Positions 32,210 through 35,156 of a stretch of DNA of 64,000 nucleotides are shown in pieces; position 1 is the first letter of the stretch; each line of letters opens with the position of its first letter. The stretch covers positions 8,060,001 through 8,124,000 of the forward strand of contig NZ_CP159534.1 in the NCBI RefSeq assembly GCF_040529335.1. Reading direction: 5' to 3'. The notes below the pieces were generated by a model. That model ran no database searches and was not told where the DNA came from. It saw only the letters and a list, made by a program, of their open reading frames with translations. The position numbers were made by a program, and so were the translations under genes. Source of the DNA: Streptomyces sp. HUAS MG91. Lineage in GTDB: Bacteria; Actinomycetota; Actinomycetes; Streptomycetales; Streptomycetaceae.

Positions 32210-32413
32210 TCAGGCGGTGACGATGTTCTCCGCCGTCGGACCCTTCTGGCCCTGCGCGATGTCGAAGTTCACCTTCTGGCCCTCGACGAGCTCACGGAAG
32301 CCCTGCGCGGCGATGTTCGAGTAGTGGGCGAAGACGTCCGGGCCGCCGCCGTCCTGCTCGATGAAGCCGAATCCCTTTTCGGAGTTGAACCACTTCACGG
32401 TGCCAGTAGCCAT
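32210..32413 (-). CDS. Cold-shock domain protein (CspA family)
   Basis: 67 residues, the standard length. RNP1 KGFGFIEQ and RNP2 VFAHYS are intact, with the N-terminus [14 protein letters not shown] and the end [11 protein letters not shown]. It binds single-stranded RNA and DNA in the cytoplasm, melting mRNA structure; Streptomyces carry several such genes, some expressed constitutively. GAAGGAG lies 6 bases upstream of the ATG. The region above it (32414 upward) is long enough for the extended 5' leader usual in cold-shock genes. Confidence 0.96.
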
Positions 32414-32717
32414 GTCTTGTCTCCTTCGGAGCAGTGATCGGAGCGTGCACTGTGCGCGCTCCGAGTCGCCGCGATGATTGCCCACCCGGAGAAAAACACC
32501 GGAAAAACAAAGTTTCGGGAACCACAACTGCAACGCCGCCGACACTAGCAGCCTGTGCCGAATTGTGTGGCTATTTCCTTTCTGCCGAATCGCGGCGGGA
32601 GCCACCGGCGCTCGGGTTGCTGCCCGGATCCGGGTGAGTGAGCTTGGTGGAAGAGGTGGGGACCCGGGGTGCGCAGCGGCGCCCTCCGGCCCGACCGCCA
32701 TTTCCCAAGGAGGACAC
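32414..32717. other. Divergent intergenic region: cold-shock leader and repeat-peptide promoter
   Basis: About 300 bases with less GC than its surroundings around 32500-32590. Reading leftward it should contain the cold-shock promoter and a long 5' untranslated leader. Reading rightward it contains the promoter for the repeat-peptide operon. No sigma-factor site is clear enough to mark. The rightward part ends with AAGGAGG, the ribosome binding site of the repeat peptide. Confidence 0.5.
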
Positions 32718-33050
32718 ATGACGAACCCCGGACAGGACCCGAACCAGGCCGAAGGCCCCGCGGACGGCGGTGCGGCGGGCACGCCCGGCGTGCACGACGG
32801 CGGCGCGGACGGCGGCGCCGAGGGTCCCGCGGACGGCGGCGCGTCCGGCACCCCGGGTGTGCACGACGGCGGCGCGGACGGCGGCGCGGAGGGTCCCGCG
32901 GACGGCGGTGCGGCGGGTACGCCCGGCGTGCACGACGGCGGCGCGGACGGCGGCGCGGAGGGTCCTGCGGACGGCGGCGCGTCCGGCACCCCGGGTGTGC
33001 ACGACGGCGGAGCCGACGGGGCCGCCGACGAGTCCGGCAGTGGCGCTTGA
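32718..33050 (+). CDS. Small repeat protein, four 23-residue His/Asp/Gly-rich repeats
   Basis: 110 residues with no Cys, Lys, aromatic residue or signal peptide. After an 11-residue leader ([11 protein letters not shown]) come four nearly identical 23-residue units of the form EGPADGGA(A/S)GT followed by [12 protein letters not shown]. The A/S position alternates A, S, A, S. Each unit has one histidine (residues 26, 49, 72, 95) in VHDGG. The start has AAGGAGG, the best ribosome site in the window, and the stop overlaps the TTG of the oxygenase gene, so the two are translated together. It could be a modified peptide precursor, a metal-binding peptide or a structural spacer; no function is established. 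Confidence 0.75.
32751..33026 (+). repeat. Four tandem 69-base repeats inside the repeat-protein gene
   Basis: Units start at 32751, 32820, 32889 and 32958. Units 1 and 3, and 2 and 4, are more alike, indicating an internal 138-base duplication. The period is a multiple of three, so the reading frame is kept. Confidence 0.9.
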
Positions 33051-34255
33051 GCATCACCTCCCTCACGTCCCAGGACGCCGGCGCCCGGCCGGGCACCGGC
33101 GTCCTGGACACCCGCCTCACGCGCCTGAGCCGGGAGGACTTCGCCCGGGACCACTGGGCACGCAAGCCCCTGCTCACCCGCTCGGCCGGTGATTTCACCG
33201 ACCTGTTCTCCGCCGACGCCGTCGACGAACTGGTCTCCCGGCGCGGTCTGCGGACGCCGTTCCTCCGCATGGCCAAGGACGGCGGCACCCTGCCCGACGC
33301 GGCGTTCACCTCACCGGCGGGGGTCGGCGCCACGATCGGGGACCAGCTCGACGACACGGCCCTGTGGCGCGGCTTCGCCGACGGCGCGACGCTCGTCCTC
33401 CAGGCCCTGCAACGCACCTGGGAGCCGGTGGCCGACCTCGTCGCCGCGCTCGGCACGGAGCTGGGCCACCCGGTGCAGGCCAACGCCTACGTGACCCCGC
33501 CGCAGAACCGCGGGTTCGACGACCACTACGACGTGCACGACGTCTTCGTGCTCCAGGTCGCGGGCACCAAACGCTGGATCGTCCACGAGCCGGTCCACCC
33601 CGACCCGCTGCGGGACCAGCCGTGGACCGACCGCCGCGCCGCCGTCGCGGAGGCGGCGCGGGGCGAGGCGTACCTCGACACGGTCCTCGCCCCGGGCGAC
33701 GTGCTCTATCTGCCGAGGGGCTGGCTGCACGCCGCGCAGGCGCAGGGCGCCGTCTCCATCCACCTGACCCTCGGCGTCCACAACTGGACCCGCCACGCGC
33801 TGGCCGAGCAGCTGACCCGCTCCGCGCTGGAACTGCTGCGGGACGACCCCGAGATGCGCGGATCCCTGCCCCTGGGCACCGACGGACCGGCCGACGACCT
33901 CGCCCTGGTCCGCGAACGCCTCGTCGCGGCCCTCGCACGGACGGACCCGGCTCCCCTCTTCCACCGGACCCGGCGCGGCCAGGCCCGCCCTGCACCACTG
34001 GGCCCGCTGGCCCAGCTGCGGGCCGTCGACAACCTCACCCCCGACACACGGGTACGGCTCCGCGAGTCCTTGGAGGCACGCCTGGAGGGCCGCCGCCTGA
34101 ACACCCGCGCCGGTTGGCTCGACCTCCCCGACGCGGACCTCCCGGCCGTGCGCCGCCTCCTGACCGGCGACCGGGCCCACACCGCCGACGACCTGGGCGT
34201 CGCACTCGTCGAACGGCTTCTGCGCGCGGGCGTCCTGCTGCCTGCCGGACGATGA
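33047..34255 (+). CDS. JmjC/cupin-type 2-oxoglutarate Fe(II) oxygenase (ribosomal-oxygenase-like)
   Basis: 402 residues. The iron facial triad is visible: His160 and Asp162 in [14 protein letters not shown], and His228 in [12 protein letters not shown]. The spacing matches the NO66/MINA53/YcfD family, whose members hydroxylate His or Arg side chains of ribosomal proteins. KRWIVHEP carries a candidate 2-oxoglutarate-binding lysine/arginine. The C-terminal region (from about 265) resembles the dimerisation and winged-helix part of these enzymes. The TTG start overlaps the stop of the repeat-peptide gene (TTGA), so the peptide is the obvious candidate substrate. Confidence 0.88.
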
Positions 34256-34265
34256 CGGGGCAGCG

Positions 34266-35156
34266 GTGACACCGGCGTCCAGGTTCTTCTGCTCCGACGC
34301 CGCCCGCTCCCGCGCGGACCCCCTGGCGGGCACCGCTCCGTACGGCTCGATCTGGATCCTCGTCGAGTACCGGGGCGGCTGGCCGCCGAACGGCTTCGAC
34401 GGCCTGCCCCTGGAGCCCGACACCAAACGCCTCGTGTTCTCCGCCGCCCAGGCGCTGCGGGCCCGCATCCTGCTGGTCCGGCGCCACGGGCGCCGCCCGG
34501 CACAGGGCCCACAGCGCTGGGCGGTCCTGCGCTACGGCCCCGACGGCGCCCACCGGCAGACCTGGGGCACCTGGACGCGCGACGAGGATCTCCTGGGCAT
34601 CGCCGCCGCCCTGGCCGCCCCCGGCGACCCCGGCGGCCCGCCGGTCGTCCTCGTCTGCGCCCACGGACTGCACGACGCCTGCTGCGCCGTCCGCGGACGG
34701 CCCGTGGGGCGGGCGCTGAGCGAGCGCTGGCCGGACCTGGTGTGGGAGTGCACGCACGTCGGCGGGGACAGATTCGCCGCCAACGTCGTGGTCGTCCCCG
34801 ACGGCGTCTACTACGGCAACCTCGACGCCACGTCGTCAGTCCGGGTTGTCGAGGACCATCTGGCCGACCGCCTGCACGCCGACCACCTGCGGGGCTACAC
34901 GAACCTCTTCCCGCCCCAGCAGACGGCGATCGCCGCCGTCCTCGCACGCTTCGGCCCGGCCGGCCGGCATCACTACGTGATCGGGGAGACGGTCCGCGAC
35001 GGCGACCGCTGGCTCGTCCGCGTCACCGGCCGCACGCCCCGCTCGCCGGTCCACGACGTCGACGTACGGTCCCACCGGACCCCACCGCGCCAGCTCACCT
35101 GCCGGGGCCGGTCCATGAGTTCCACCGTCGTCTACGAGGCCGTGTTCCGGCAGTGA
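34266..35156 (+). CDS. Sucrase/ferredoxin-like (thioredoxin-fold [2Fe-2S]) protein
   Basis: 296 residues. Conserved family features are FFCSDAARSRADPLAGTAP at the N-terminus, WILVEYRGGWP, VLVCAHGLHDACCAVRGRPV and the cluster-binding ECTHVGGDRFAANVVVVPDG. The Cys/His set in CAHGLHDACC and CTH suggests an Fe-S or metal site. The function of these proteins is unclear; electron transfer is possible. It follows the oxygenase by 10 bases with GTG preceded by ACGGGGC, so it is probably in the same operon. Confidence 0.82.
   Translation: MTPASRFFCSDAARSRADPLAGTAPYGSIWILVEYRGGWPPNGFDGLPLEPDTKRLVFSAAQALRARILLVRRHGRRPAQGPQRWAVLRYGPDGAHRQTWGTWTRDEDLLGIAAALAAPGDPGGPPVVLVCAHGLHDACCAVRGRPVGRALSERWPDLVWECTHVGGDRFAANVVVVPDGVYYGNLDATSSVRVVEDHLADRLHADHLRGYTNLFPPQQTAIAAVLARFGPAGRHHYVIGETVRDGDRWLVRVTGRTPRSPVHDVDVRSHRTPPRQLTCRGRSMSSTVVYEAVFRQ

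What the first reader, a model, noticed from the sequence alone, without database searches (positions are those of the whole stretch)
32718..34255. Four-repeat His/Asp/Gly peptide co-translated with a JmjC-type oxygenase
Directly visible: a 110-residue protein made of four 23-residue repeats, each with a single histidine in VHDGG, ends in a TTGA overlap with a gene whose product has an intact His160/Asp162/His228 iron site. Known: the NO66/MINA53/YcfD family hydroxylates single His or Arg residues in ribosomal proteins. Inference: the oxygenase hydroxylates the repeated His or Asp of its own partner peptide, making a multi-core modified peptide (a possible RiPP-like system). The following sucrase/ferredoxin-like gene may belong to it. 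I know of no described system with this pairing.
Basis: partly seen in the sequence, partly recalled or inferred. Interest (0 to 1): 0.85.

Follow-up and report, generated by a model that had tools for sequence, protein, structure and literature searches.

The report
Aspartate-repeat peptide paired with an oxygenase
A small repetitive, aspartate-rich peptide gene sits beside an iron-oxygenase gene and a ferredoxin-like gene, and the same neighbours recur in distant Actinomycetota with different repeats that keep their aspartates, which points to an undescribed peptide-modification system.

Summary
In detail: ORF 32718-33050 encodes four 23-residue repeats, overlaps a TTG-started JmjC_2 gene with an intact His160/Asp162/His228 site, and a Suc_Fer-like gene follows. 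It is not local. A repeat ORF lies upstream of the oxygenase in 20 of 21 genus orthologues, 79 of 80 named loci and 19 of 20 distant loci; the three misses are cut by contig ends. One further relative, L129, lacks a recognisable one. The ferredoxin-like gene follows in 79 of 80 and 18 of 20.

His is not the shared feature: it is absent from the repeats of 10 of 79 close peptides and from 16 of 19 distant ones; Asp occurs at least three times in every one. The 19 distant peptides share a leader like LxDEDIxT.

Best reading: a multi-core RiPP-like system in which an NO66-fold oxygenase beta-hydroxylates repeated aspartates, with a ferredoxin-like helper. Pairing is well supported, Asp likely, chemistry inferred, function open. 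JmjC enzymes acting on RiPP precursors are already published, so this is a new variant of a known kind; ten paper searches listed no description of it.

The parts
32707..32713 (+). ribosome-binding site AAGGAGG of the peptide gene
   Evidence: sequence read directly
32718..33050 (+). repeat peptide, 110 residues: short N-terminus [11 protein letters not shown], four 23-residue units, short acidic tail
   Evidence: conserved upstream ORF
32751..33026 (+). the four 69-bp units (32751-32819, 32820-32888, 32889-32957, 32958-33026); three Asp in DG[GA]A context per unit
   Evidence: positions computed from the unit starts
33047..34255 (+). JmjC_2 (PF08007) oxygenase, 402 residues, TTG start overlapping the peptide stop; Fe ligands H160, D162, H228; full NO66-like fold including a C-terminal winged-helix-like part
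34266..35156 (+). Suc_Fer-like (PF06999) protein, 296 residues, thioredoxin-like ferredoxin domain near residues 125-211; candidate cluster residues C131, C140, H164, D168

Best explanation
The three genes form one self-contained cassette. The small gene makes a multi-core precursor whose repeats present regularly spaced Asp residues (three per 23-residue unit here). The JmjC oxygenase, a complete NO66-type fold, captures the precursor and beta-hydroxylates many of these aspartates with Fe(II), O2 and 2-oxoglutarate. In lineages with a leader like LxDEDIxT, that leader is probably the docking site, perhaps for the C-terminal winged-helix-like domain. The Suc_Fer-like protein is a thioredoxin-fold ferredoxin that supplies electrons, either to keep the oxygenase iron reduced or to act on the product. 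Shown: the cassette, its recurrence across the phylum, purifying selection on the peptide, intact iron ligands, predicted folds. Inferred: enzyme-substrate relation (strong), Asp as target (good), beta-hydroxylation (moderate), leader docking (moderate), role of the ferredoxin (weak).
Against: No modification has been measured. Ala also occurs at least three times in all 98 peptides recounted and Gly in 97, so composition alone does not single out Asp; chemistry does. The closest characterised fold relatives hydroxylate His or Arg (titles), and BipG acts on Orn. L129 has an oxygenase without a recognisable repeat peptide. Suc_Fer is missing in L108, L121, L123, L129, L165 and L173, so it is not essential. 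The window's own clade lacks the LxDEDIxT leader. No protease or exporter was seen to recur, which is unusual for a RiPP.
Confidence: 0.68

Rival explanations
1. Asp is only the entry point. The oxygenase, perhaps with the ferredoxin-like protein, carries the repeat beyond hydroxylation: keto-Asp, aminomalonate, backbone cleavage, desaturation or a crosslink.
For: Related outcomes are in print for other RiPP oxygenases: Asp to beta-hydroxyAsp and then aminomalonate by SmaO/SmaX (described in PMC13097080, passages), beta-hydroxyAsp by an MNIO (PMC13060819, passages). A conserved redox partner suggests more than a plain 2OG hydroxylation.
Against: Peptides have no Cys and few residues able to crosslink. 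2OG oxygenases of this fold are known mainly as hydroxylases (recalled).
Confidence: 0.14
2. One reading: the single His of VHDGG is hydroxylated, as NO66 and MINA53 do on ribosomal proteins.
For: Best fold matches are the His hydroxylases NO66 and MINA53; His is present in the repeats of 69 of 79 close peptides.
Against: Gln replaces His in whole lineages and 16 of 19 distant peptides have no His at all although the oxygenase active site is unchanged.
Confidence: 0.05
3. The oxygenase modifies a ribosomal or other cellular protein, and the acidic repeat peptide is a regulator, chaperone or competitive decoy for it.
For: Full-length similarity to ribosomal oxygenases. The repeats are disordered-looking and acidic.
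Against: Rapid change of repeat number and sequence with Asp retained fits a substrate better than a binding partner; PF08007 relatives with small upstream peptides occur in other contexts too.
Confidence: 0.1
4. The repeat ORF is a neutral GC-rich satellite that happens to be open.
For: Other frames over the repeat are open too, as is common at this GC content.
Against: Third-position variation, conservation in 79 of 80 loci, 0 of 454 control genes, ribosome site.
Confidence: 0.01

Closest known systems
JmjC tailoring enzymes of RiPPs: BipG / BpmG and the cupin-like PbsQ of biphenomycin-type clusters (PMC12707348 and PMC12257519, passages)
   Same: JmjC-domain or cupin-like 2OG enzyme hydroxylating a residue of a precursor peptide encoded beside it
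   Different: They act on one Orn in a short core within a cluster that also has MNIO, B12-rSAM, arginase and protease genes; here there are many Asp repeats and, beyond the peptide, only a Suc_Fer-like partner recurs. I did not compare the sequences directly.
PF08007 proteins with RRE-like folds, whose bacterial homologues (~30% identity) are said to occur in RiPP-like contexts (PMC12710340, section 6)
   Same: Same Pfam family and RiPP-like context
   Different: That section, as read, describes no Asp-repeat precursor and 'sucrase' and 'cupin' do not occur in the main text.
Ribosomal oxygenases NO66, MINA53 and YcfD
   Different: Sequence identity 18-26% in those alignments; here the gene is coupled to its own repeat peptide
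RiPPs with beta-hydroxyAsp made by other enzymes: PesHI (MNIO), SmaO/SmaX (PMC13060819, PMC13097080, passages)
   Same: Peptidyl Asp beta-hydroxylation
   Different: Different enzyme family for PesHI; SmaO's paper is not held so its family is not compared; no Asp repeats of this kind described in the passages seen
Corallotide and plesiocin type multi-core graspetides (PMC13097080, passages)
   Same: Repeated motifs in one long precursor, one with a 2OG oxygenase
   Different: Need a graspetide synthetase; none recurs beside this cassette
Thioredoxin-like [2Fe-2S] ferredoxins and Suc_Fer-like proteins such as yeast Apd1 (Apd1 recalled)
   Different: Fourth ligand position is Asp (HxGGD) in 99 of 99 cassette members; the other Suc_Fer protein of this genome has His

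Membership tests
JmjC_2 / ribosomal-oxygenase-like Fe(II)/2OG oxygenases (PF08007) | Pfam match over cut-off | tested here: met
   97.2 bits against cut-off 22
JmjC_2 / ribosomal-oxygenase-like Fe(II)/2OG oxygenases (PF08007) | HxD...H iron triad | tested here: met
   H160, D162, H228 in 106 of 106
JmjC_2 / ribosomal-oxygenase-like Fe(II)/2OG oxygenases (PF08007) | 2OG-dependent hydroxylation activity | not testable with these tools
   needs an assay
Ribosomal His/Arg hydroxylases (NO66, MINA53, YcfD) | substrate is a ribosomal protein | not testable with these tools
   fold met; genomic pairing points to the peptide instead
RiPP system | gene-encoded precursor next to a tailoring enzyme | tested here: met
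RiPP system | leader recognised by the enzyme (RRE or similar) | tested here: inconclusive
   LxDEDIxT-like leader in 19 of 19 distant peptides but not in the window's clade; the C-terminal part is winged-helix-like in the model, RRE function untested
RiPP system | post-translational modification of the core | not testable with these tools
   needs mass spectrometry
RiPP system | leader removal / export genes | tested here: inconclusive
   no such family recurs across loci, but the simple gene caller used recovered the oxygenase in only 89 and Suc_Fer in 70 of 104 loci
Thioredoxin-like [2Fe-2S] ferredoxin / Suc_Fer-like (PF06999) | Pfam match over cut-off | tested here: met
   60.2 bits against 34.9
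Thioredoxin-like [2Fe-2S] ferredoxin / Suc_Fer-like (PF06999) | thioredoxin-like ferredoxin fold | tested here: met
Thioredoxin-like [2Fe-2S] ferredoxin / Suc_Fer-like (PF06999) | four cluster ligands (Cys4 or Cys2His2; recalled) | tested here: inconclusive
   C131, C140, H164 conserved; fourth place Asp in 99 of 99; cluster binding untested
Graspetide | ATP-grasp macrocyclase in the cluster | tested here: inconclusive
   no third enzyme family recurs, same limits as above; no dedicated search for ATP-grasp genes was run

The most novel reading that the evidence does not exclude
A phylum-wide class of genetically encoded poly-(beta-hydroxyaspartyl) peptides that stay in the cell and bind metal: each 23-residue repeat offers three beta-hydroxyAsp groups, enough for one six-coordinate Fe(III) site, and the Suc_Fer-like protein, with an unusual Cys2-His-Asp site, is the dedicated electron donor that loads or releases the metal.
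Probability: 0.17. Interest if true: 0.92.

Novelty: new variant of a known kind. Interest (0 to 1): 0.77.

Why it matters
If true, JmjC enzymes of the ribosomal-oxygenase fold have been recruited across a phylum to decorate many aspartates of a fast-changing repeat peptide. That would be a new substrate class for JmjC enzymes, a natural many-site peptide hydroxylase, and a compact three-gene system in which substrate, enzyme and redox partner can be expressed and tested together. It would also give a role to peptides that databases name only as hypothetical or, in one case seen, 'BatC protein'.

Tried and rejected
Regulator boxes (consensus strings recalled) upstream of the peptide gene: no excess in 94 target regions over 420 control regions; for the iron box 0 of 94 targets and 3 of 420 controls reached 13 of 19 matches. 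Iron control is not supported. Recurring extra genes: none beyond the trio that I could recognise; clusters of 31, 16, 9 and 9 loci were wrong-frame or antisense readings of the cassette, scattered or lineage-specific, judged by position only. Phages: no match in 50,697 records. Plasmids: 17 of 72,556 records, all 28-31% identical, 16 in S. clavuligerus and 1 in Pseudanabaena. Pfam and NCBIfam for the peptides: no match over cut-off. Protein search with a distant peptide (L161): none at E <= 0.001. Literature: ten searches; none listed a paper that I recognised as this pairing. Most subscription papers are not held.

Corrections made on checking: undercounted His where the start chosen was too far downstream (L071); one search recounts, giving 10 of 79 without His instead of 11. 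One search dropped 6 of 269 unit pairs differing at more than 5 residues; one search gives the counts without that filter. One search read the ferredoxin motif in 79 of 104 loci; with a looser pattern reads 99 of 104, the other five being loci where no Suc_Fer gene was found. The leader pattern was read in 18 of 22 peptides; with the frame extended upstream and Q allowed at one place, in 19 of 19 distant ones.

Rows dropped: one search left out 3 of 104 loci whose oxygenase begins within 300 bases of the locus start. Several loci are the same contig met twice (for example L002/L031, L005/L042, L006/L054, L007/L052, L008/L046, L020/L083, L121/L133, L123/L132), and L155-L174 include wider cuts of most of L138-L154, so the sets overlap and must not be added up. 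Plain Foldseek was not run; only the VIA alignments were used, and families missing from those lists are not excluded; the 20 distant cassette oxygenases form a branch of only moderate support (94/67) inside a group with RiPP-like paralogues, so a single origin of the trio is not shown.

Full report
What is there. The window is part of an 8.6-Mb genome in 2 contigs; that the genus is Streptomyces is inferred from contigs shared between (for example L002 and L031). On the + strand 32718-33050 encodes a 110-residue peptide with four 23-residue units. Its TGA overlaps the TTG start of a 402-residue JmjC_2 protein, 33047-34255. Ten bases further on a 296-residue Suc_Fer-like protein begins, 34266-35156.

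It is coding. Between the four units 41 codon differences are silent and 7 are not. Within the peptides of 63 loci that have two or more full units, 1867 are silent and 323 are not over 269 pairs, mostly at third positions (192/160/2043). The pairs are not independent.

It is a conserved pair and mostly a trio. Of these 21, 20 have the repeat ORF just upstream; the other is cut by its contig end. In named genomes 124 relatives were found and the best 80 kept, 53-89% identical: Streptomyces, Arthrobacter, Kocuria, Brevibacterium, Brachybacterium, Nocardioides, Microlunatus, Flexivirga and others. The repeat ORF is upstream in 79 of 80, the last again at a contig end. Suc_Fer follows in 79 of 80, not in L108. 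The window's neighbours (kinase, PRC-barrel, GAF-ANTAR) accompany the cassette in L031, and the PRC-barrel gene in L032, among these 80.

It reaches across the phylum with different repeats. A profile of the oxygenase matched 56 of 396 Actinomycetota genomes at E <= 1e-30. Of L129-L137, eight have peptides of the kind GEGPADGGSNPEGHDGGADGTA and six have Suc_Fer; L129 has neither, only an acidic ORF without such repeats. For twenty distant loci (L155-L174) nineteen carry an upstream Asp-rich peptide such as TDGDASDASDGDASDA or DADSTDADADSTD; L166 starts at its contig end; Suc_Fer was found in 18. In the reverse direction, a peptide query hit 6 of 396 genomes and each has the oxygenase beside it. 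ORFs of such composition stood upstream of 90 of 101 target oxygenases and 0 of 454 other genes in the same loci; the thresholds were set after seeing the peptides.

Which residue? In the 79 close peptides the residue before DGG is Ala 666 times, His 183 and Gln 38. His is absent from the repeat region in 10 of 79 close and 16 of 19 distant peptides. Over these 98 peptides Asp and Ala occur at least three times in all, Gly in 97, His in 39, Cys never. Ala and Gly are unlikely targets chemically, so I take Asp. The 19 distant peptides share a leader of the form LxDEDIxT, and L121, L123 and database peptides P0014 and P0022 have the similar LNDDDI. The window's own clade has no such leader.

Mechanism, with weight. 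Substrate relation: strong, from co-conservation. Asp as target: good. Beta-hydroxylation: moderate. Ferredoxin as electron donor: weak. Metal binding: a guess prompted by three Asp per unit here and by beta-hydroxyAsp being an iron ligand in siderophores (recalled); no iron box was found, which counts against iron control though not against metal binding.

Against known systems. JmjC enzymes on RiPP precursors are in print: BipG hydroxylates Orn (PMC12707348, passages), PbsQ likewise (PMC12257519, passages), and bacterial JmjC homologues in RiPP-like contexts are mentioned (PMC12710340, section 6). Beta-hydroxyAsp in RiPPs is in print from other enzymes (PMC13060819 and PMC13097080, passages). 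PMC13118837 was seen in passages only and does not bear on this. Ten searches listed no Asp-repeat precursor with JmjC and Suc_Fer. Hence 'new variant of a known kind'; and because no modification is shown and no protease or exporter was seen to recur, I call it RiPP-like rather than a RiPP. On checking, the mended counts did not call for a change of odds.

Noticed in passing
L022 and L026 1311-1457 (loci reverse-complemented), L178 3760-3906 (S. clavuligerus pSCL4): About 31% identical JmjC paralogues follow a 48-residue peptide of another kind, LxPDEIEV leader then DNDPxDPVI, with an S9 peptidase next door in S. clavuligerus. Its leader resembles LxDEDIxT.
   Followed up: partly
L027, L029, L030 and L024 (just upstream of the JmjC gene): Other JmjC paralogues follow short peptides ending in SDGGGTGRSDGND or GGRSDGND, and L024 has two tandem peptides with DDNDSDDSGG / DDNDSNDSGG. 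These look like separate JmjC RiPP-like groups.
   Followed up: no
L173 6205-6672 (oriented with the oxygenase): A variant peptide with leader LGDDDISS and repeats like ADGTDQGVxGGTYGPRDA, no Suc_Fer gene found.
   Followed up: no
window about 34656-34790; L175: Cassette Suc_Fer proteins carry HxGGD in 99 of 99 read, the same genome's other Suc_Fer protein HxGGH: a possible unusual [2Fe-2S] ligand.
   Followed up: partly
upstream of the peptide gene in L031-L035, L037, L041; window about 32540-32690: A conserved block with CTCCGGTTGCC and GGGTGAGTTTGGT in Streptomyces loci; across all 94 upstream regions TGGGAACA occurs in 17 against 0 of 420 controls. Could be promoter or regulator sites, or shared ancestry.
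   Followed up: no
window 32210-32413 (-): Divergent neighbour that reads like a CspA-type cold-shock protein (ORF; name recalled, not searched).
   Followed up: no
P0012 (metagenome protein, 635-base contig): About one and a half repeat units run straight into an acylphosphatase domain PF00708; a fusion or an assembly artefact.
   Followed up: no
G190 C7:69429-69704: An isolated 55%-identical fragment of the oxygenase C-terminus (query 307-401), perhaps a decayed cassette.
   Followed up: no
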